NCBI GenBank assembly: GCA_028288625.1
Contig: JAQBNI010000141.1
Span: 1-51,152 of the forward strand
Length of the DNA stretch: 51,152 nt
Direction of reading: 5' to 3'
Source: Bacteroidota bacterium
Lineage (GTDB): Bacteria > Bacteroidota > Bacteroidia > Chitinophagales > JADIYW01
A program made the position numbers and the translations under genes. The notes beneath the pieces were generated by a model, which had not been told where the DNA came from, made no database searches, and worked only from the letters and a program-made list of their open reading frames with translations. Shown one piece after another: positions 40,990 through 51,152 of this stretch. Position 1 is the first letter of the stretch; each line of letters starts with the position of its first letter.

Positions 40990-41758
40990 AATCTATTCCT
41001 TTAATAATGCCGCGTTCGGAAGTTTTTACAAACTGAAGTATATAATCTCTTAAAGCTGAGCCGGGAATTTCTTCTTCGATCTTTTGCAATGCCTGCGAAG
41101 TATTCAACCCGTTATTTCCAAAGATAGAACGGTAGACATCCTGTATCATATGTATTTCTTCCGTTGTGAAATTATTTCGTTTCAAACCAACAGAATTAAT
41201 ACCGGCATATTGCGCAGGATTTCTCATCACCAGGCAAAAAGGAGGCACATCTTTCCCTATCATACTTCCTCCAGAAATAAATGCGTGCTTGCCAATCTTT
41301 GTAAACTGGTGTGCGCCGCTCATTCCGCCGAAATATGCATAGTCCTCAATAGAAACATGTCCTGCTAAATTTGTGGCATTGGCTAAAATGCAATGCTCAC
41401 CGATTACACAGTCGTGTGCCACATGCACATACGCCATGAGCATGGTATCACTTCCTACGCTTGTGTTGCCGGTAATTTTTGTTCCGCGGTTTACTGTAAC
41501 ACATTCCCTGATCACTACCCTATCGCCGATCTGCACCGTAGAATATTCTCCTTCAAATTTAAGGTCTTGCGGAATGGTGCCAATGACGGCTCCGGGAAAT
41601 ATTTTGCAATCCTTACCGATTCGTGTGCCCGGAAATATGGTTACATTCGGACCTATCCACGTATTATCGCCGATAGTCACATCTTCGTTTACCGTAGAAA
41701 AATGCTCTACCGTCACATTTTTTCCAAGCTGAGATTTCGGGTGTATAAAATTTGTCAA
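40988..41758 (-). CDS. lpxA: UDP-N-acetylglucosamine O-acyltransferase LpxA
   Basis: First step of lipid A synthesis: acylates UDP-GlcNAc from hydroxyacyl-ACP. A 256-aa left-handed beta-helix of hexapeptide repeats (VTVEHFSTVNEDVTIGDNTWIGPNVTIFPGTRIG), with HVAHDCVIGEHCILANATNLAGHV containing the catalytic His and HQFTKIGKHAFISGGSMIGKDVPPF. A C-terminal helical domain follows from about residue 190. The start codon is TTG at 41758-41756, forming a TTGA overlap with the stop of the lpxC-fabZ gene, so it is translationally coupled. Confidence 0.95.
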   Translation of the reverse strand: MTNFIHPKSQLGKNVTVEHFSTVNEDVTIGDNTWIGPNVTIFPGTRIGKDCKIFPGAVIGTIPQDLKFEGEYSTVQIGDRVVIRECVTVNRGTKITGNTSVGSDTMLMAYVHVAHDCVIGEHCILANATNLAGHVSIEDYAYFGGMSGAHQFTKIGKHAFISGGSMIGKDVPPFCLVMRNPAQYAGINSVGLKRNNFTTEEIHMIQDVYRSIFGNNGLNTSQALQKIEEEIPGSALRDYILQFVKTSERGIIKGID

Positions 41759-43143
41759 GGTTTGAAAATTTTAGCGGTTAAGTCCGCTTCGCAAACAATC
41801 TGATCACGAACATAAATAATTCCGTGCATAGAAGCAACACCTAATTTTATAGGATGATTGAGGCACATTTTAATGATCATAGTGTCTCCCGGTATGATCG
41901 GGTGGTGAAATTTTGCGTTTTCTATCCTTGAAAAATAAGTGAGGTATTCTTCCGGATGATCCATTTTATGTAAGGCTAATATCCCTCCTGTTTGTGCCAT
42001 GGCTTCGATCTGCAGAACGCCCGGCATGATGGGTTTGGAAGGAAAATGTCCTTTGAAATAATCCTCATTAGCCGTCACATTTTTTAAACCGGTTACAGAT
42101 GTTTCCGTGAGCTCCAGTATCTTATCCAAAAATAAGAACGGCTCCCGGTGCGGTAATATTTTTTTGATGTCGTTCAATTCATAAACAGGATGATTGAAAT
42201 CTTCCGGTTTGGGAACTGATTTTAGTTTTCTAATTTCCGTCACTCTCTTCTTCAGTATTTTTGCAAATGCAATATTCGATGCATGTCCCGGCTTGGAAGC
42301 GAATATCTTTGCCTTCATTGGAATGCCCACTAATGCAAGGTCTCCCACAAGATCGAGCAATTTATGCCGCGCCATTTCATTCGGATAGCGCAGCTTGATA
42401 TTATTCACTATACCTTTTTGAGGAATGGTATGAATATCCTGCTGAAAAATTTCTGCAATGGCTTCCGCACTTTTATGCGTGATCTGTTTTTCTGCAATAA
42501 CAATAGCATTATTTAAATCTCCGCCCTTTATTAAACCGTGTTTATACAGCTGTTCCACTTCATGCAAGAAACAAAATGTACGCGAAGAAGACAACTCAGG
42601 TATAAAATCTTTTATCTCTTTTAATTCAGCATATTGCTTTCCGATCACATCCGAATTAAAATCTATTAAAGTAGTGAGAGAATATTTTTCATACGGTACC
42701 GCGAGGTATTCCGTATCCTTTTCTTCATCATAAAAACGTACAGTTTCGTCGAGATGAAAATACACACGTTTTTCTTTTTGCTCTACAATGCCTGCCTGCA
42801 GGATCAGTTGTACAAACGGATATGCGCTTCCGTCGAGGATCGGAATTTCCTGCGTATTCAATTCAATAAGCAGGTTGTCGATCTCGCAGCCTACAATGGC
42901 AGCCATCAAATGCTCAACAGTGGAAACTTTTACTTTATTTTTTTCTATGGTTGTGCCGCGGCGCACATCCACCACCAGTTCGCAATCTGCCGGAATTTCC
43001 GGGGAATCATGGATGTCTGTTCTCTTGTAAATAATTCCGGTATTCTCATTTGCGGGAATTAGGGTTACGGTACAAGCTTTGCCCGTGTGCAATCCTTTTC
43101 CTGAAATACTGATCGGCTTGGCTATGGTCTGTTGGAACGGCAA
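41755..43143 (-). CDS. lpxC/fabZ: Bifunctional LpxC deacetylase / FabZ dehydratase fusion
   Basis: A 462-aa fusion typical of Bacteroidota. Residues 1-305 are LpxC, the zinc deacetylase that commits UDP-acyl-GlcNAc to lipid A. STVEHLMAAIVG gives the first zinc His, and MARHKLLDLVGDLAL the second His and the Asp. Residues 315-462 are FabZ, the 3-hydroxyacyl-ACP dehydratase, with LPHREPFLFLDKI, GHFPSKPIMPGVLQIEAMAQ (about 362-381) carrying the catalytic His and Glu. The fusion joins lipid A and fatty acid synthesis, which draw on the same hydroxyacyl-ACP pool. It heads the leftward operon with lpxA. Confidence 0.96.
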   Translation of the reverse strand: MPFQQTIAKPISISGKGLHTGKACTVTLIPANENTGIIYKRTDIHDSPEIPADCELVVDVRRGTTIEKNKVKVSTVEHLMAAIVGCEIDNLLIELNTQEIPILDGSAYPFVQLILQAGIVEQKEKRVYFHLDETVRFYDEEKDTEYLAVPYEKYSLTTLIDFNSDVIGKQYAELKEIKDFIPELSSSRTFCFLHEVEQLYKHGLIKGGDLNNAIVIAEKQITHKSAEAIAEIFQQDIHTIPQKGIVNNIKLRYPNEMARHKLLDLVGDLALVGIPMKAKIFASKPGHASNIAFAKILKKRVTEIRKLKSVPKPEDFNHPVYELNDIKKILPHREPFLFLDKILELTETSVTGLKNVTANEDYFKGHFPSKPIMPGVLQIEAMAQTGGILALHKMDHPEEYLTYFSRIENAKFHHPIIPGDTMIIKMCLNHPIKLGVASMHGIIYVRDQIVCEADLTAKIFKP

Positions 43144-43301: not shown

Positions 43302-44363
43302 TTATTTATATTTCCATGAGAGTAACGAAAGAATTGAATCTTTTAAAGCTCCCTCCGGTATCTGATTGTCACACTCCTTACACAGATTGCGGTTCTTTAA
43401 TCCTTTTATGATATCCTTTCGGTTTTCACAAAAATCCATTACACAGCCACGGGTCTGATCATGATAACCGATTTCGGTAAAGTAGGCGATTAATTGCCCA
43501 ATTAAAATATATACTAATCCTTCTTCAAATAAATCGCCTGCCACTTTAACATATTCATAAAGATGATCAGCGGACAAAAACAAGAATCTCTCATCATTAC
43601 CGCTTGGACCTGAAAAATAATTAGAGACAATTCCATCCTTTTCTTCAAAAGCCAATGCGTATTTTGTAATACATGCAATTAAATCAACGGCTAAATGCTG
43701 ATGTTGTGATATATAAGATTCAGGGACCTTGTAAACTGCAAAATTTTCTTTCCTGCTTATAACTTCGGTCATATTTTTTAATGAAGGCATGTTAGGATGA
43801 GTAAAAAGAAAATAATTCTGAGCACTATTTAATTGATCAATTATCTTATTTAAATTGGAAAGTCCCATATCCAAATCAACTATTCCAATTCTGTAATGAT
43901 ATCCGGCAGATATTTTATTGGTGTCTTCACCAACTGATTTGTTTGCCTTGGGTTGGTTTGCTAAAACAGTTAACAGCTTATCCACCCCAACTTCCCATTT
44001 CGGAAAAAGATCAATCCAGTTAAGCGCATTTATTTCTTCATATGGAGATTCGCATTCATTCAATCGGAGGGGAATTAAATAAATTTCTGTAGGTGGAAAC
44101 TCATCTAAAATATCAATTGCTTGTTTTATTTCTCTATTTCTAACACCACGTCCTATCCCTGATTCACTGGAGAATAAGGAAATAAAAAAATTTGCTTCCC
44201 TGATTGCTTTTCTGATTGCAGGTCTCCATTCCAGTCCTCCCGGCATACTATTTTTATCCATCCACACATCATAACCTCCGTTGCAATTAGACAAAGCAGA
44301 ATATAATTTTTCAGCTTGATTGGTGTGATATTCCCACGAATAATTAATAAAAATCTTCTTCAT
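43302..44363 (-). CDS. TIR-domain protein with C-terminal Cys-containing domain
   Basis: A 353-aa protein. Residues 1-135 are a TIR domain: MKKIFINYSWEYHTNQAEKLYSAL, YDVWMDKNSMPGGLEW, ANFFISLFSSES, and RGVRNREIKQAIDIL in which Glu78 is at the position of the NADase catalytic Glu; YLIPLRLNEC and LNWIDLFP complete it. Residues 155-353 are unassigned: a Rossmann-like start (YRIGIVDLDMGLSNL), helical middle, and a C-terminal segment with Cys307, Cys312, Cys328 and Cys331 (FCENRKDI ... NLCKECD) that may bind zinc. TIR proteins of this type commonly degrade NAD+ in antiviral defence or act as adaptors. It is divergent from the patatin gene (102-bp spacer). Confidence 0.85.
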   Translation of the reverse strand: MKKIFINYSWEYHTNQAEKLYSALSNCNGGYDVWMDKNSMPGGLEWRPAIRKAIREANFFISLFSSESGIGRGVRNREIKQAIDILDEFPPTEIYLIPLRLNECESPYEEINALNWIDLFPKWEVGVDKLLTVLANQPKANKSVGEDTNKISAGYHYRIGIVDLDMGLSNLNKIIDQLNSAQNYFLFTHPNMPSLKNMTEVISRKENFAVYKVPESYISQHQHLAVDLIACITKYALAFEEKDGIVSNYFSGPSGNDERFLFLSADHLYEYVKVAGDLFEEGLVYILIGQLIAYFTEIGYHDQTRGCVMDFCENRKDIIKGLKNRNLCKECDNQIPEGALKDSILSLLSWKYK

Positions 44364-44465: not shown

Positions 44466-47066
44466 ATGGATGACAACGATGTAATTGCAGCAATGAAAGT
44501 TCTTATAGAGAACGTAAAGCAGAAAAAATATCAACTGACTGAAAATAATATCACCTTGGTTATTGATCATTTTGAAGTTTTCAAGCCTTTAATTAAATCA
44601 CACCTGGAAAAAGATTCTAAAATACACGATGGGAAAGCTGTACTCGAAAAATTTAAGACAAAATTCGAAGAATTAGAATTATACAAAGAACCTTCATACA
44701 TTTTTACAGCTCAACAATTAGCTGTCTTTACGTACAAAGATCCTGATGTTCCGGATTTTGACAAATTTGAAAATGCGCTGGAGATCATAATGCCTGTTTA
44801 TAAAGATCAAAAAACAGTGAACAGTGAAACGGGAAAAGAAGAGCTTGCAGAAACACTCGGGATCATAGGTTCCTTATACAAAAGAAAATGGTACCGTCAG
44901 GCTCAATTATCCGATCTTGTATTTGCATATGAATATTATAAGGAAGGCGCAGATCTCTGTGAACAAAAAGATCTTTATTGCCTGAACAATGTTGCTTTTT
45001 TATTGGATGTCTTACATTCTTTAGACCATATTTCTTCCATTATTACAGATAACAATGCAGATGAAATACGCAATGATATTTGCAATAGATTAGAGAATAA
45101 AACAAATTCGGACTATTGGAGTTATGTCACGCTGGCTGAAAATCAATTGGCATTGGGCAGAACACCTGACGCTATCTTATCTTTTAAAAAGGCTCTTGAA
45201 TTCGAACACAAGGAATGGGAAATAAAATCTTCTTTAGAGCAAATAACCGAATTGGTCCGTATCAGGAAGAATGTAATAGCCAAAGATTTCTTTGACAAGC
45301 TAAAAGAAATTAATATTTATTACAGTCCAGTAAATAAAATCGGACTGGCATTATCAGGCGGCGGCTTCAGGGCATCTTTTTATCACATCGGTGTCTTAGC
45401 AAAACTAGCTGAAATGGATGTGCTTAAGAAAGTGGAAATTATTTCAACTGTTTCCGGTGGGAGTATTATCGGCGGTTATTATTATCTCGCTTTAAAAGAA
45501 AAATATGACAAGAACGAAATAAGAGATTATAATAAAATAATAAGCCAAATATCGAAAGACTTTTATAAAAAGGTTCAAAAGAACCTAAGAATGCGCTTGT
45601 TTTCAAACCTATGGTTCAACATAAAACAATTTCTTCTTCCTTCCGTATTTAACCGGAGCTCGAGAATTGCAGATCTGTATGACAAGCATTTATACCAGCA
45701 GTTTACAAAGAAGAAGAATGCTGCTTTTCATGATATAAAGATCTTTCCCAAAGGAGAAACAGATTTTAATCCAAAGTATGACAACTGGAAGAAAGATGAA
45801 AAGGTGCCGGAATTAATTGTAAATGCAACCACACTCAATACAGGACATAACTGGACCTTCACTTCTACATACATGGGCGAACCGCCGTACAGGATCAACA
45901 GGCTCATTGATTCACTTTTCAGGTTAAAGCGTACTTATTACACTGACCTCAAGGATGGGAACGCAAATTTTCCATTCTCAAAAGCAATTGCGGCATCTGC
46001 CTGCGTACCCGGTGTATTTGAACCGATAGAAATCCCGGGAATGTATCCGGGCATAACTGTTTCTCTTGTTGATGGCGGCGTAAGTGATAACCAGGGTGTA
46101 AATACTTTGCTGGAAAGAGATTGCAGGATCATATTGATAAGTGATGCAAGCGGACAAATGGCAGAAACAGATTACGTGAACAACAGCCTTGTGAATACGT
46201 TAGACAGATCACAATCAGTGTTAGACGGAAATTTGAGGAACAACCGGCTTCTTGAAATAAAAGAATTTGAAAGACATAAAGTACTGGATGCAGCGATGCT
46301 GGTTCATCTTACGCAGGATATTGAAAACAAGGAGATCGGCATTAAGGACAATGACGCAAAAGAAGAATCTGATATCCTAACCGCATCTGTTGACGATCCA
46401 CAAAAAACGTATTACGGCGTAAATAAAAAAATCCAGAAAGCGTTGGCGGAGATCAGAACAGATCTCGATAATTTTTCGCAATGGGAAGCAAATGCATTAA
46501 TGCTGTCAGGTTACCTGGCTACGCAGCACCAGTTTTCATCCCACCCTAATTTAGAAACTTCATTTCCCAATTGTAATAATACAGAATGCGGCGATTGGAA
46601 ATTCCTAAAATTAAAAGATCAGATTTGTGTGGATGTACCGGGTGAAGAAATATTAAACCATTTGCAGGTGGGAAAAGAAAAATTCTTTCGCATACTCAAA
46701 TACAATCGTATTATTAAGTACACTAGTACGATTGGTATAGTCATATTATTATTAGTCCTCTTTTTTTTATTTTTTATAAATTATTATATTGAAATAACAA
46801 AATGCACTGTTATTGACGGGCTATTGATATTCCTGCCTTTTTTCTCAATTCCTATAATATCTAAAGTTATATGGAATATTATGCGAAGAAAACAACTTCC
46901 TGAGGGAACTACGGTATGGAAAGAATTATGGGGCGATATTAAAAAGCAGTCTGTATTAAATTATGTAATGTATACGATGGGAATTGTTTTATGGATCCCG
47001 GCGTGGCTGCATTTGTTGATAGTTACGCCGCTGTTGAATAGGATTGGGAAGATGAAAGAGAAGTAA
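44466..47066 (+). CDS. TPR-S sensor / patatin-like phospholipase with C-terminal membrane helices
   Basis: An 866-aa protein. Residues about 90-270 match the TPR-S (MAP3K TRAFs-binding-like) domain of bacterial conflict proteins: ELAETLGIIGSLYKRKW, YYKEGADLCEQKDLYCLNNVAFLLDV, DYWSYVTLAENQLALGRTPDAILSFKKALEF. Residues 293-690 are a patatin domain: GGGFRA at 298-303 for the oxyanion hole, catalytic Ser330 in STVSGGSIIGG, and Asp536 in SLVDGGVSDNQG completing the Ser-Asp dyad. Three hydrophobic helices lie at about 755-775, 786-803 and 839-857. It would sense a signal through the N-terminal repeats and cleave membrane lipids, which is a common abortive-infection effector action; this role is inferred. 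The start ATG is at 44466. Confidence 0.88.
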   Translation: MDDNDVIAAMKVLIENVKQKKYQLTENNITLVIDHFEVFKPLIKSHLEKDSKIHDGKAVLEKFKTKFEELELYKEPSYIFTAQQLAVFTYKDPDVPDFDKFENALEIIMPVYKDQKTVNSETGKEELAETLGIIGSLYKRKWYRQAQLSDLVFAYEYYKEGADLCEQKDLYCLNNVAFLLDVLHSLDHISSIITDNNADEIRNDICNRLENKTNSDYWSYVTLAENQLALGRTPDAILSFKKALEFEHKEWEIKSSLEQITELVRIRKNVIAKDFFDKLKEINIYYSPVNKIGLALSGGGFRASFYHIGVLAKLAEMDVLKKVEIISTVSGGSIIGGYYYLALKEKYDKNEIRDYNKIISQISKDFYKKVQKNLRMRLFSNLWFNIKQFLLPSVFNRSSRIADLYDKHLYQQFTKKKNAAFHDIKIFPKGETDFNPKYDNWKKDEKVPELIVNATTLNTGHNWTFTSTYMGEPPYRINRLIDSLFRLKRTYYTDLKDGNANFPFSKAIAASACVPGVFEPIEIPGMYPGITVSLVDGGVSDNQGVNTLLERDCRIILISDASGQMAETDYVNNSLVNTLDRSQSVLDGNLRNNRLLEIKEFERHKVLDAAMLVHLTQDIENKEIGIKDNDAKEESDILTASVDDPQKTYYGVNKKIQKALAEIRTDLDNFSQWEANALMLSGYLATQHQFSSHPNLETSFPNCNNTECGDWKFLKLKDQICVDVPGEEILNHLQVGKEKFFRILKYNRIIKYTSTIGIVILLLVLFFLFFINYYIEITKCTVIDGLLIFLPFFSIPIISKVIWNIMRRKQLPEGTTVWKELWGDIKKQSVLNYVMYTMGIVLWIPAWLHLLIVTPLLNRIGKMKEK

Positions 47067-47086: not shown

Positions 47087-50000
47087 TTATCGTTTGGATT
47101 GCGGTTTTATTATTGTAAGTATGGCAGAATTTTGCTTTGCCTTCTGCTCTTTTGTACAACCACCCTTTTCCGGAGGTAAATCGCAATTGCATTTAACAAT
47201 AGGATCGCTTTCTCCCCAACCTCTAGATATAAGTCTTGAAGCTGACACACCGTGTTGCATAAACCACATCAATACACTTGCAGCTTTGTCTTGGCTTAGT
47301 ATGAGACTGTATTTACTAGAACTTGAACAATCACTTCTACCCGATATATCCAATTTATCATTCTCATTATATTTTAAATATAGAAGCACCTTTTCTAACT
47401 TATTTTCGTCTTCAGGTCTTATGACGGTCTTATCATACATAAAATAGACTGTATCTATATTAAATGTAGTCGTAATATTTGAAGGGTCCTGGTTATTTAA
47501 ATTATTATCCGCCATTTGTAAATTAAAATGAAATGCCCAGTCTCCTTGATTAGGATTTCTTTTTACAACTTTTGCCTTTATTCTTAGAATCCCCAAAACT
47601 ATATCCTTATTTATTTGTTGAGCCATTGTCTCCTGGTCATCATAGAAATATTGTAATTCATTTCCTGAAACAGGCGTACTAAATTTATCTTGTGTGTTAG
47701 TGACTTTTAAGCCCATTGCTTCGATCTGGTTTGTTAGTTTTTGAGAATTATCTATTCCAAAGACCACTAGCGGAACTGCAGACATATTAAAAACCGGCTT
47801 CTCTGTAACTCTGCCATTAGTATTAATAATGAGCTTGTAATATCTTTTTGCATAAACCATTGCCTCGCAATAATCAGTAAATTTTGTAACCACATCGTAT
47901 TGCGGTTTAATTATTACATTCTCATTTACATCTTTATACCCTAATAATCCGTTTGACGATTTGAAGGATATTATGTCTTTACAATTTATTTCTCCTTCTT
48001 TTAAATATAATAAAATGCTGTCGCTGTGCAGTCGAGAAAAAACTTTTGCATTTTGTCCTGTAACACCAACGCTAGTAGCTAACTCCGTGATACTGGAAGA
48101 AAAAATCTGTTGGTTGAAAAAACTAGATGCTTGTAATGCTAAATTTTTAGCTGGTGTAATTTGACGATTCGTAAAATAAGTAACTGATGAGGCTTTTACA
48201 TCAGAATTGTAAGTGACGGAAACATTATAATCAGAATTTAAGCTTCTTATGAATTCCTTTACTTTGCTTTGGAGGTTTTGTGGATTATAATAAATATGTA
48301 CTATCTGTTGTTGGGTATTAGTTTTGCATTGTCCTAAAAATAAACATTTCAAACTATCTTCCGTAATAACCGGAGCATTGTCCAATGATCTATCCCCGTT
48401 GATCTCTATTTCATATTCATACCCGGATATATTTTTTTCTGTCTGATCATCGATAGACCTTAAAGGAAATCCTGCTTTGAGTAATTTACTGGTAATTTCA
48501 TATTTGTCTTGCTGTGAAAGGTGAGACCCGAAAACAATATAATTAGCAAAGGCTGTTCTTAAATTATCATTATACAGGTAGGAATGATATCCCCATTTTA
48601 ATAGCTGGCGCTTCATCTTAATTGTATCGTCTCTATATCCCGGGTGATAATTTACATACAGGTCTCTGCAGCTTCTGCCCAATAGTTCCAGATGATAATT
48701 ATATCCAAATTTAAATAGCAATGTCGTTTTAATTGTGCCGCTATTAAACATTAAGGATATCCGTAAGCTGTCGGATTGTGATTTTAAAAATGATTTTGGA
48801 ATTGGAATTCTGAGCGTATCTATAACCTTTATACTATCTGTTGAACCTCGCTTATTATCGAAAAAATGAATGGTATCAGGACCTAATTTTCTTATAATAA
48901 TACTATCGCCGGCTTCTATACCCAAAGAAGCACTTGAATTTCCCATTGCTTCTTTCAGACATAAATTAGAAATAAAATAAATAGCAGATGAATCGGGTAA
49001 AACGGTATTTTGAGTAACCAGGTGGAAAATTTTATTTGCAGGGGAATTTACAATCAGATTCTTTTTAAAATACAGAAACGCTGTGAAGGAAACCAAAGTC
49101 ACTAATAAAAAGCTCGTTATCCAAAATGAACGGGAAAATTTATTTAATTTTTCTTCCTTATCATTTTTTAAGTATTCCCGGATACTTACATTCTTATTAT
49201 TGATCTGCACAGGGGTATTCCACCTGTCATCCTCTTTCTCATTTTTCTCAATATATATGCGGAATGGAATGTCTGGAAATTTACCTTGTTCATACAATAC
49301 AAGAAAATTTTTTGCATAGTTTTTTATTTTTTCATCATTTTCATATTTATCAGGGTTGTTACCATATAAGATAAAACTGTTGATGTATTTATTCACTAAT
49401 TTTTCCTCAAAACTTGAAGCCGATTCATCCAGCTTGATTTCATCCAGCATTCCTAACAGAACCGTTCTTGCTTTTATTTCATTATCTACACTTAAATTCT
49501 TCAACAGCATTAACCGGGCTTCAGAAGAAAATTTTCCTTCTGCCATCCACTTTATCCTGCTGAATTTTAATAGCGTTTCATAATTGATCTTATTTGTGTC
49601 TTTTAAAACAGTCTTGCCTATTTCAAGCGTTACATTCCAGTTAATCTTCGGATACACAGCCAACGCACAGAGCCATTGAAACAGATCTTCATCGTCATCG
49701 AGATATTTAATGAGTTCGTCACGCGAATTAAATTCCACATATTTAGAATCATAAGTGGCATATTTATTTTGCGAAAAAATATCAGGAATAACAGTCTCTT
49801 CATTTAACAGCTTAACAATATCCAATAAGCCGGTAATATCTGCAGGTATAAGCTTAAACAACGAAGAAAGTATACGTTCATTACTTCCCCAATCGTTAAA
49901 AGGTATAGTGGAAATTAATATCCTGTTCTGCCAGAATGAAAAGTTATCAAAAAGATTTTTTTTCACTTCCGGCTTGTTATACTCTAACAGGCTTCTCCCA

Positions 50001-51152
50001 TCCGTAATAAAAATTAAATTCGCATTATAGTGTATATCTTTTAGTTGATGAACAGAAAGACCTGTATCGTTTTCCCGCTGGTAAAACTTATCAGGGACCT
50101 GGTAATAATAATAGAAATCAAGCCGGATCGAATTTTTTAAAAAGAAACGAAGCAGGTAACTAAATAAATAAAACTGCTGGCTATTGGCATAAGAGTGATC
50201 AACCAGGAACAGGTATTCTTTATGAACTTTTTTCTTTTTAAAGAAGGGACTTATAAACTCATTATTTTTTATAGTCCGTAGAATTGTCCTCTTTATATCC
50301 AAAGTTTTTAATTCACTGTCAGTCGTCTTTTTTAATTCTTCTGAAAGAATCTGCAATGATTTTAACGGGGTAATGTTTTCTTCTTTATTCCTGAAAGGTA
50401 TTTGAAATGGAGGTTGATCTCCATTTGTTTTATTTTCTATCGCTTTTTCGTTTTGATTTTTTTGAATCGCTTTTCTTTTTTTATACCATATATAGATCAA
50501 TGCTATCAAACAGGAGATTATCAAAAACAAAAATGCCCAGAGCCATTTTTGATTGGCAACATAATTATATGCAGGCGGAATAGGTTCGGGAGTTGAAATA
50601 AGCTCCATTTCATCATCTAAAACAACCTGATCATATGTAGAACTAAAATAATCATACGGAAATCGTGATAGAAATGAATCGGTTTCATTTTTATAGCGGA
50701 AGTTAACCGCATACGCTCCGGAGTTCTTATAAGCATGCTGAAAAACAGGCTTATTCGATACGTTTGAATTTGTTGAACTATCATCAACTGTCCATTCATA
50801 AGGCAGGTTTAAACTGCTGTCAATATTTATAGTGTAAGTATTTGTATCACCCGCATATAAATCTTCATTTTTTGCGTGGATATTAAGATCTACAGCCGGA
50901 GCCACAAATATTGAAGAATAGATAAGGGTAGAATCGAAATGACATTTTTGCGAATGTACATTTATAATCAGCGTATCTCTGCCGTACCTGATTAAGCGAT
51001 GGGAATAATTGATATCTTTTACTTTAGATTGATCGCTGCTAAGAGAATAAGTCACTTCATATTGTAAGGTATCTTTAACCTTGCTGAAAATATCTGAAGC
51101 TGATAAAACCATTTCATCGCCCATATGAACATACAAAGGCTCAGGTCTAAAA
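47087..51152 (-). CDS. Giant membrane protein: conflict-adaptor-like cytoplasmic region plus periplasmic WG-repeat and OmpA domains (N-terminus outside window)
   Basis: At least 1354 residues are visible; the frame is open to the window edge, and a TTG at 51136 is not convincing as start, so the N-terminus is missing. Residues (numbered from 51136): beta domains ending in a PKD-like EWTVDDSSTNSN (1-170); membrane helix (about 196-216); cytoplasmic region (220-665) with EYLFLVDHSYANSQQ, NLIFITDGRSLLEYN, FWQNRILISTIPFNDWGSNERILSSLFKLIPAD and LFQWLCALAVYPKINWNVTLEIG, a pattern I know from STAND/FGE-associated conflict proteins; second helix (about 668-692); periplasmic LytR_C-like units, a WG repeat (GLLGYKDVNENVIIKPQYD, near 1080), and a C-terminal OmpA domain (about 1232-1349, FMYDKTVIRPEDENKLEKV ... 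ISGRSD). The architecture links the cell wall to a cytoplasmic signalling domain. Naming of the cytoplasmic domain is from memory. Confidence 0.8.
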   Translation of the reverse strand, partial: FRPEPLYVHMGDEMVLSASDIFSKVKDTLQYEVTYSLSSDQSKVKDINYSHRLIRYGRDTLIINVHSQKCHFDSTLIYSSIFVAPAVDLNIHAKNEDLYAGDTNTYTINIDSSLNLPYEWTVDDSSTNSNVSNKPVFQHAYKNSGAYAVNFRYKNETDSFLSRFPYDYFSSTYDQVVLDDEMELISTPEPIPPAYNYVANQKWLWAFLFLIISCLIALIYIWYKKRKAIQKNQNEKAIENKTNGDQPPFQIPFRNKEENITPLKSLQILSEELKKTTDSELKTLDIKRTILRTIKNNEFISPFFKKKKVHKEYLFLVDHSYANSQQFYLFSYLLRFFLKNSIRLDFYYYYQVPDKFYQRENDTGLSVHQLKDIHYNANLIFITDGRSLLEYNKPEVKKNLFDNFSFWQNRILISTIPFNDWGSNERILSSLFKLIPADITGLLDIVKLLNEETVIPDIFSQNKYATYDSKYVEFNSRDELIKYLDDDEDLFQWLCALAVYPKINWNVTLEIGKTVLKDTNKINYETLLKFSRIKWMAEGKFSSEARLMLLKNLSVDNEIKARTVLLGMLDEIKLDESASSFEEKLVNKYINSFILYGNNPDKYENDEKIKNYAKNFLVLYEQGKFPDIPFRIYIEKNEKEDDRWNTPVQINNKNVSIREYLKNDKEEKLNKFSRSFWITSFLLVTLVSFTAFLYFKKNLIVNSPANKIFHLVTQNTVLPDSSAIYFISNLCLKEAMGNSSASLGIEAGDSIIIRKLGPDTIHFFDNKRGSTDSIKVIDTLRIPIPKSFLKSQSDSLRISLMFNSGTIKTTLLFKFGYNYHLELLGRSCRDLYVNYHPGYRDDTIKMKRQLLKWGYHSYLYNDNLRTAFANYIVFGSHLSQQDKYEITSKLLKAGFPLRSIDDQTEKNISGYEYEIEINGDRSLDNAPVITEDSLKCLFLGQCKTNTQQQIVHIYYNPQNLQSKVKEFIRSLNSDYNVSVTYNSDVKASSVTYFTNRQITPAKNLALQASSFFNQQIFSSSITELATSVGVTGQNAKVFSRLHSDSILLYLKEGEINCKDIISFKSSNGLLGYKDVNENVIIKPQYDVVTKFTDYCEAMVYAKRYYKLIINTNGRVTEKPVFNMSAVPLVVFGIDNSQKLTNQIEAMGLKVTNTQDKFSTPVSGNELQYFYDDQETMAQQINKDIVLGILRIKAKVVKRNPNQGDWAFHFNLQMADNNLNNQDPSNITTTFNIDTVYFMYDKTVIRPEDENKLEKVLLYLKYNENDKLDISGRSDCSSSSKYSLILSQDKAASVLMWFMQHGVSASRLISRGWGESDPIVKCNCDLPPEKGGCTKEQKAKQNSAILTIIKPQSKR

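What the first reader, a model, noticed from the sequence alone, without database searches (positions are those of the whole stretch)
47087..51152. Unusual fusion of a conflict-adaptor-like cytoplasmic domain to a periplasmic WG-repeat/LytR_C/OmpA region
The cytoplasmic stretch with the pattern VDHS..., ITDGRS..., LISTIPFNDWG..., LCALAVYPKINW resembles the vWA-like/adaptor domain found in FGE- or STAND-associated conflict proteins, normally soluble. Here it sits between two membrane helices with a PKD-like region outside one and a LytR_C-like/WG/OmpA region outside the other. I know of no named architecture of this sort.
Basis: partly seen in the sequence, partly recalled or inferred. Interest (0 to 1): 0.7.

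Follow-up and report, generated by a model that had tools for sequence, protein, structure and literature searches.

The report
Membrane receptor of a suspected immune system
The gene encodes the membrane-spanning, cell-wall-anchored part of a three-protein machine already predicted in 2020 to defend bacteria against invaders; it belongs to a known kind, but its clear inside/outside layout makes a testable case for a receptor that senses outside and signals inside.

Summary
The observation mostly holds. The minus-strand frame 47087-51151 is open to the contig end, so its N-terminus is missing. It has two membrane helices, a PKD-like domain outside, a ~450-residue cytoplasmic core and a C-terminal OmpA domain. 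WG is sub-threshold; LytR_C was not detected.

The core is a divergent vWA domain plus a conserved helical domain, probably the published "vWA-L" linker. It defines a family encoded beside a MoxR AAA+ gene, usually with an iSTAND gene (46 of 80 named loci hold all three).

In this genome, the left end of contig C62 carries the matching upstream genes: DUF4062-iSTAND, MoxR, and the N-terminus of a vWA gene running off the end. A same-genus genome has lpxD next to lpxC-fabZ; here lpxD lies on C62 and lpxC-fabZ on the window. An island interrupts that pair and links the contigs.

So this is the vWA component of an "iSTAND ternary conflict system" (Kaur et al. 2020), where transmembrane and OmpA-bearing forms are already described.

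Favoured mechanism (inferred): an envelope-spanning sensor whose vWA-MoxR relay switches the cytoplasmic DUF4062-iSTAND protein. Published authors instead favour iSTAND as sensor. No activity is shown.

The parts
47087..51152 (-). 3' part of the vWA-component gene (1354 codons seen; the 5' end lies beyond the contig)
50681..50860 (-). PKD-like domain, extracytoplasmic (residues 98-157)
   Evidence: PKD 2.1e-5, 24.8 bits vs cut-off 23.5 on the isolated piece; PKD_4 in 21 of 85 N-parts, window included, at E<=0.01
50489..50545 (-). membrane helix (residues 203-221; second helix of the full protein)
   Evidence: hydropathy 2.6; K+R 0 before, 5 after
49793..50326 (-). vWA domain (residues 276-453); MIDAS-like D318 and D384
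49229..49741 (-). conserved helical domain after the vWA (residues 471-641); no Pfam name; probably the 'vWA-L' linker domain of PMC8195603
49067..49129 (-). membrane helix (residues ~675-695; third helix of the full protein)
47465..49063 (-). periplasmic region (residues 697-1229) without a family match above its cut-off; weak WG-like stretch at 47876-47941
47183..47446 (-). OmpA peptidoglycan-binding-type domain (residues 1236-1323)
44466..47066 (+). neighbouring TPR-S / patatin-like phospholipase gene with C-terminal hydrophobic stretches; convergent with the vWA gene; link to the system unproven
43302..44363 (-). neighbouring TIR-domain gene; link to the system unproven
41755..43143 (-). 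lpxC-fabZ: border of the inserted island in the window (lpxD, the other border, is on contig C62)

Best explanation
The gene encodes the vWA component of an iSTAND-type MoxR-vWA ternary conflict system. Full layout (the two contig ends joined in thought, not in letters): CoxE-like four-helix domain inside, helix 1, PKD-like loop outside, helix 2, vWA plus helical linker domain inside, helix 3, periplasmic tail ending in an OmpA domain that grips peptidoglycan. Proposed working: the tail and loop are held between inner membrane and wall and sense envelope disturbance, such as phage entry. The vWA domain passes this to the MoxR ring, which uses ATP to remodel the cytoplasmic complex and switches the DUF4062-iSTAND protein, whose N-terminal domain makes the response (signal or cell arrest). 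Supported by computation: the parts, their order, the topology and the family. Inferred: partner binding, direction of signalling, defence.
For: Family and operon: 9 of 395 class genomes, own included, hold the core. In 80 named loci fetched with the MoxR alignment, 67 hold the vWA core, 53 an iSTAND-like third component and 46 all three as separate frames; of 64 same-strand MoxR-vWA pairs within 3 kb, 42 overlap or lie within 50 bases. Third components: 46 of 60 scanned match Pfam iSTAND, with CHAT in 11, DUF4062 in 11 and TIR_2 in 10. Own genome: C62 has a DUF4062 protein (4e-20) whose C-terminus matches an iSTAND profile built without it (2.7e-10 after two rounds; 0.0026 with the starting profile; small database of fetched frames), a MoxR AAA+, and an open-ended fragment matching the vWA component's N-terminal domain (6e-18). 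Linkage: in G395 lpxD and lpxC-fabZ are adjacent; here they lie on C62 and C28. vWA: the core profile finds the genome's CoxE-type vWA at 2.6e-7 in the fetched frames; the model (pLDDT 90, pTM 0.87) has the Midasin MIDAS domain as best solved match (Z 7.6, rmsd 4.3, 167 aligned), with the VWA domain of NorD, from the NorQ-NorD complex, at 6.7. Topology: of 54 sequences with 2+1 helices (window included, its helix 1 unseen), helix 2 has more K/R after it in 50, helix 3 more before it in 41, helix 1 more before it in 38 of 53. Tails after helix 3 (48 scanned) carry CarboxypepD_reg (7), OmpA (4), TSP_3 (3), PEGA (1) and SLT (1); no TIR is among the 25 families shown of 47, while TIR_2 appears in 2 of 19 tails without helix 3. 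Sensor role of the vWA protein: proposed for related systems in PMC10907252 (passages).
Against: The two halves of the gene are on different contigs; the join rests on synteny and homology. Foldseek gives no PDB match at E<=0.001 for the core and VIA Z values are middling; unrelated dehydroquinases reach 6.2. MIDAS is degenerate: DxSxS reads DHSYA; of 84 unique cores the first residue is D in 56 and the third S in only 12. Pfam's own iSTAND model did not hit the C62 protein, the A2 search of the genome found nothing at E<=0.001, and hhalign gave 5% probability. FGE and WD40 tails occur both with and without helix 3, so tail type does not sort cleanly by compartment. The charge rule fails for helix 3 in 5 of 54 and helix 1 in 9 of 53. 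No same-genus genome of seven shows a core match in the listing, which is cut. Published analyses take the tails as effectors and iSTAND as the invader or nucleic-acid sensor. I found no experimental test of an iSTAND ternary system in the searches.
Confidence: 0.72

Rival explanations
1. Tail as effector, iSTAND as sensor (the published reading): the third component senses the invader, perhaps its nucleic acid, in the cytoplasm, and MoxR-vWA deploys the tail, which then acts on wall or membrane.
For: Kaur et al. call OmpA, PEGA, PASTA and Sel1 effector domains preceded by a TM segment and the third component the likely sensor; PMC8195603 and PMC12839542 also take iSTAND as sensor (passages). 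Some tails after helix 3 are wall enzymes: Amidase_3 in L030, SLT in 1 of 48.
Against: The window's tail has no enzyme domain that Pfam finds. Enzymes and adaptors (CHAT, TIR, kinase, caspase, EADs) sit on third components. The authors of PMC10907252 put the sensor on the vWA protein for related systems (passages).
Confidence: 0.35
2. A housekeeping MoxR-vWA chaperone pair for envelope proteins (like CoxD-CoxE), not a conflict system.
For: Described MoxR-vWA pairs mostly assemble enzymes or complexes (section 8 of PMC7159879).
Against: A separate CoxE-like pair on C3 fits that place. The window's pair is in an island absent from the lpxD-lpxC site of G395, with GC 0.32-0.36 against 0.37-0.38 around it, beside TIR and TPR-S/patatin genes, and with a third component of conflict type.
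Confidence: 0.1
3. The window fragment is an orphan or decayed gene that does not join C62.
For: Separate contigs; the gene is cut at the contig end.
Against: Complementary open ends on the same strand, matching order of relatives, and lpxD / lpxC-fabZ synteny. No stop in 1354 codons.
Confidence: 0.05

Closest known systems
iSTAND ternary systems (MoxR-vWA subsystem 2; Kaur, Burroughs, Iyer, Aravind, eLife 2020, PMC7159879)
   Same: MoxR, vWA with CoxE-like N-terminal four-helix domain, iSTAND third component, membrane segments at the vWA N-terminus in a subset, OmpA after a membrane segment, variable tails with FGE the commonest
   Different: PKD, DUF4062 and CHAT are not words of the main text (term searches; figures and source data not seen), so the PKD-like loop and the DUF4062 third component may be undescribed there
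vWA-L linker, iSTAND2 and TERNS3 systems (eLife 2021, PMC8195603; passages seen)
   Same: an alpha-helical linker domain (vWA-L) joins vWA to the tail in VMAP and iSTAND systems; position and helicity fit residues 471-641
   Different: no vWA-L, iSTAND2 or TERNS3 model was at hand, so identity is by position only
VMAP ternary systems (PMC7159879)
   Same: MoxR-vWA couple
   Different: third component here is iSTAND-like; MoxR lacks a long N-terminal extension
DGR-diversified MoxR ternary sensors of Thiohalocapsa (PNAS 2024, PMC10907252; passages and section 14 seen)
   Same: MoxR with a vWA protein proposed as the sensor; one locus (DGR 9) has a target with a periplasmic variable domain
   Different: no diversity-generating retroelement was looked for here; tail is OmpA-type, not CLec
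CoxD-CoxE, NorQ-NorD, Midasin MIDAS
   Same: AAA+ of MoxR clade with vWA co-chaperone; Midasin and NorD are among the best structural matches of the core
   Different: no iSTAND partner or periplasmic tail (recalled)
ZorA-ZorB of Zorya (recalled, not tested)
   Same: membrane protein with a peptidoglycan-binding OmpA-like domain in a defence system
   Different: ZorB is MotB-like with no vWA, MoxR or iSTAND (recalled)

Membership tests
iSTAND ternary system | MoxR AAA+ gene beside the vWA gene | tested here: met
   C62:353-1303, matches A1; Pfam AAA/AAA_5; on the neighbouring contig, linked by synteny
iSTAND ternary system | vWA domain in the large component | tested here: met
   divergent MIDAS; Foldseek alone not significant
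iSTAND ternary system | third component with inactive STAND domain | tested here: met
   C62:1284-2585 C-terminus vs iSTAND profile, E 2.7e-10 after two rounds, own sequence excluded. Against: Pfam iSTAND silent, hhalign with A2 5% probability, A2 search of the genome empty
iSTAND ternary system | CoxE-like four-helix N-terminal domain of the vWA component | tested here: met
   C62 fragment vs family N-domain profile 6e-18; likeness of that profile to the genome's CoxE-type protein weak, 0.006
iSTAND ternary system | membrane segments and peptidoglycan-binding tail in a subset | tested here: met
iSTAND ternary system | all three genes contiguous on one piece of DNA in this genome | tested here: inconclusive
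   gene is split by a contig end; synteny with G395 supports it
iSTAND ternary system | acts against invaders | not testable with these tools
   no experiment
vWA-L linker domain | alpha-helical domain between vWA and tail | tested here: inconclusive
   all-helical model at the right place; named in PMC8195603 (passages); no profile of vWA-L to compare with
VMAP ternary system | VMAP third component | not tested
   no VMAP model was run against the C62 protein by itself; Pfam gave only DUF4062
VMAP ternary system | long N-terminal extension of MoxR | tested here: not met
   35 residues precede the Walker A motif in the C62 frame from its first start codon
iSTAND2 and TERNS3 systems | their own third components | not tested
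   no models at hand
FtsH ternary system | FtsH-type AAA+ third component | tested here: not met
   no AAA+ match in the third protein
beta-propeller ternary system | beta-propeller fused to vWA | tested here: not met
   no propeller match in the window protein at E<=1 apart from the sub-threshold WG stretch
OmpA peptidoglycan-binding domain | Pfam OmpA above cut-off | tested here: met
   51.7 vs 27.2 bits
WG repeat | Pfam WG above cut-off | tested here: not met
   13.6 vs 25.6 bits
LytR_C | Pfam LytR_C match | tested here: inconclusive
   none at E<=1; residues 929-1006 align weakly with a relative's tail (E 0.055)

The most novel reading that the evidence does not exclude
These vWA components are transmembrane immune receptors of bacteria: a swappable outer domain reads the envelope, and a vWA core with a MoxR ring relays the signal to a cytoplasmic caspase-like, TIR or DUF4062 domain on the iSTAND partner. 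The helical linker domain (model pLDDT 95), whose best though weak solved match is the apoptosome protein CED-4 (Z 5.3, rmsd 4.9, 110 aligned), would be a STAND-like arm that docks onto the iSTAND partner.
Probability: 0.25. Interest if true: 0.7.

Novelty: new member of a known kind. Interest (0 to 1): 0.38.

Why it matters
Ternary MoxR-vWA conflict systems are predicted; in the listings of my searches and the passages I saw I met no experimental test of one. A version whose variable part is outside the membrane and whose partner's enzyme domains are inside separates the two candidate sensors by compartment. That makes the open dispute, tail as effector with iSTAND as sensor (Kaur 2020 and later) or tail as sensor (PNAS 2024), directly testable with topology fusions and domain swaps.

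Tried and rejected
Relatives of the periplasmic tail: of 395 phylum genomes 3 matched, the own genome in full and two others by weak short matches at about 5e-4, so the tail is nearly unique there. PADLOC: no hit for the window protein at E<=1; the C62 MoxR gave weak AAA+ hits and the C62 DUF4062 protein none. PDB sequence search with the core and the helical domain: nothing below E 0.01 (Med26, S100-A9 and others). Pfam for the helical domain: of 50 members at most 2 match any family at E<=1. Neighbouring patatin and TIR genes as parts of the system: patatin has no match at E<=1e-3 among the frames of the fetched loci; TIR finds only third components of L157 and L097. They stay as neighbours. 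A three-row alignment of tails (A6) was too poor to fold. The first five-round iSTAND profile took in the C62 protein, but N-terminal domains could have drifted in, so I repeated it with the iSTAND part alone. The pair on C3 was considered as partner and rejected because it is complete with its own vWA gene.

Rows dropped before counts: 4 of 90 cores outside 300-520 residues (its 86 rows still hold two duplicate pairs; unique counts); (references), exact duplicates, frames under 560 residues, N-parts under 60, third-component frames open at the 5' end or over 700 residues. Of 86 N-part references one (L144) was left out of A5; of 64 third-component references four (one of L137, two of L138, one of L162) out of A8; of 64 core references one (L134) out of A4; of 60 helical-domain references ten shorter ones out of A7. 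In one search, of 60 tails after helix 3 the 12 WD40-like ones were not sent to Pfam, and 11 frames, duplicates included, fell in neither tail set.
Full report
What is there. The minus-strand frame at 47087-51151 is open for 1354 codons up to the contig end; the window is the entire contig C28 of a 161-contig assembly. The protein seen has, in order: a PKD-like region, a helix (203-221), a cytoplasmic stretch, a helix (~675-695), and a ~660-residue tail ending in OmpA. PKD is just over its cut-off only when the first 220 residues are scanned alone; WG is below cut-off; LytR_C did not appear.

Relatives. The cytoplasmic core alone found matches in 9 of 395 class genomes, own included; 7 of the 8 others are from one family. 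Their full frames show what the window lacks: an N-terminal ~100-residue domain and a first helix, then a loop, the second helix, the core and in most a third helix. Upstream in most lie one or two further genes: an AAA+ MoxR-like ATPase and a protein with CHAT and iSTAND domains (representatives scanned). The tails vary: WD40, WG, TPR, FGE-sulfatase, trypsin, amidase, laminin-G, response regulator with EAD11 (10 tails).

Breadth. Their titles name Bacteroidetes, Proteobacteria, Cyanobacteria, Nitrospira and others. Of these 80, 67 have the vWA core, 53 an iSTAND-like protein, 46 both plus MoxR as separate frames. The set is biased: it was seeded with MoxR proteins of mostly membrane-type systems. 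Third components: Pfam iSTAND in 46 of 60 scanned, CHAT in 11, DUF4062 in 11, TIR_2 in 10, EAD11 in 8.

The rest of the operon in this genome. Searching the own genome with the MoxR alignment found two strong loci and one weak match. On C3 a MoxR sits next to a CoxE-type vWA protein: a housekeeping-type pair. On C62 a MoxR lies at 353-1303; upstream of it a 433-residue protein; downstream, at 2-340, a 113-residue fragment that runs off the contig in the middle of a hydrophobic stretch. The 433-residue protein has DUF4062 and its remainder matches an iSTAND profile that was built without it (2.7e-10 after two rounds, 0.0026 with the starting profile), although Pfam's iSTAND model, the A2 search and a single hhalign comparison did not reach significance. 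The 113-residue fragment matches the N-terminal domain of the vWA family at 6e-18.

Do C62 and C28 join? In G395, of the same genus, the HD-domain gene, lpxD, lpxC-fabZ, lpxA and an ABC gene follow each other, with lpxD and lpxC-fabZ about 0.1 kb apart. In this genome the HD gene and lpxD are on C62 and lpxC-fabZ, lpxA and the ABC gene on C28, all on the minus strand. The open ends face each other. So an island of roughly 11 kb (DUF4062-iSTAND, MoxR, vWA, patatin/TPR-S, TIR) sits between two lipid A genes. GC of the island pieces is 0.32-0.36, against 0.38 for the first 43 kb of the window and 0.37 for the rest of the C62 stretch; the patatin gene (0.36) hardly differs. Relatives' loop lengths suggest a few dozen residues are missing in the gap.

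The core. Of 84 unique aligned cores the MIDAS-like position 318 is D in 56 and E in 20; position 320 is S in only 12; position 384 is D in 45; position 421 is W in 75. AlphaFold2 with 64 rows gave pLDDT 90.1 and pTM 0.87. Foldseek found nothing at E<=0.001. VIA-align ranks the Midasin MIDAS domain first (Z 7.6, rmsd 4.3, 167 aligned), followed by anthrax-receptor, NorD (6.7) and integrin vWA domains; type II dehydroquinases reach 6.2, so structure alone would be weak. Sequence adds: the core profile finds the genome's CoxE-type vWA on C3 at 2.6e-7, in the small set of fetched frames. The second half is a helical domain (pLDDT 95.4) without a Pfam family or a convincing PDB sequence match. By place and make-up it is probably the alpha-helical linker 'vWA-L' that PMC8195603 names (passages). 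Its best solved matches are CED-4 chains (Z 5.1-5.3, rmsd 4.7-4.9, 110 aligned), above ferritin-like rows but weak; FKBP51 also reaches 5.1.

Topology. Of 87 unique sequences 53 have two helices before and one after the core. Charges follow the positive-inside rule: helix 2 in 50 of 54, helix 3 in 41 of 54 (5 opposite), helix 1 in 38 of 53 (9 opposite); the window has 0/5 at helix 2 and 5/3 at helix 3. Tails after helix 3 (48 of 60 scanned; the 12 WD40-like ones were set aside): FGE 15, CarboxypepD_reg 7, OmpA 4, TSP_3 3, PEGA 1, SLT 1 (the 25 commonest of 47 families are shown). Tails without helix 3 (19): FGE 10, TIR_2 2, WD40 2 (25 of 68 families shown). The TIR domains seen thus lie in tails that stay inside, though FGE and WD40 tails occur in both. 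OmpA occurs after helix 3 in the window and in L089, L131 and L152.

Known or new. Kaur et al. 2020 (PMC7159879; sections 8, 20 and part 1 of 35 read, passages of others) describe iSTAND ternary systems with these parts, N-terminal TM segments in about 28% and OmpA among domains after a TM. PKD, DUF4062 and CHAT do not occur as words in its main text, though caspase-like and DRHyd domains do; figures and source data were not seen. PMC8195603 and PMC12839542 (passages only) keep iSTAND as the sensor; in the latter the BREX protein BrxB is also an iSTAND. PMC13326643 (passages) shows lambda challenge results for BREX in which mutations at a BrxB-BrxC interface remove protection, so an iSTAND protein of another system does matter for phage defence. 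The 2024 PNAS paper (PMC10907252; passages and section 14) proposes the vWA protein as sensor and the third component as effector. I met no experimental test of an iSTAND ternary system. So this is a new member of a known kind.

Mechanism. I favour outside-in sensing because in these membrane forms the variable part is outside while many third components carry enzyme or adaptor domains inside. That is inference; the published reading remains open.

Noticed in passing
window 41755-43143 and genus genomes G395-G401: Within one genus, two of eight genomes (own and G395) have an LpxC-FabZ fusion (80% identical); the best match in the other six is a 42-45% identical frame of LpxC length without FabZ.
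   Followed up: no
L052 2599-2820 (-): A 73-residue ORF lies between lpxD and the DUF4062-iSTAND gene, at the border of the island on C62; identity unknown.
   Followed up: no
window 44466-47066: TPR-S/patatin protein with a GGGFR motif, a DGG motif and hydrophobic stretches at its C-terminus: a possible membrane-acting effector in the same island.
   Followed up: partly
window 43302-44363: TIR protein whose only matches among the frames of the fetched loci are third components of L157 and L097.
   Followed up: partly
L084 6912-13130: Two vWA components in tandem in G441 C23, both with further hydrophobic segments after the core, many in the longer one.
   Followed up: no
L037/L101 2357-8083: A vWA component broken into two frames in a Bacteroidetes MAG.
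   Followed up: no
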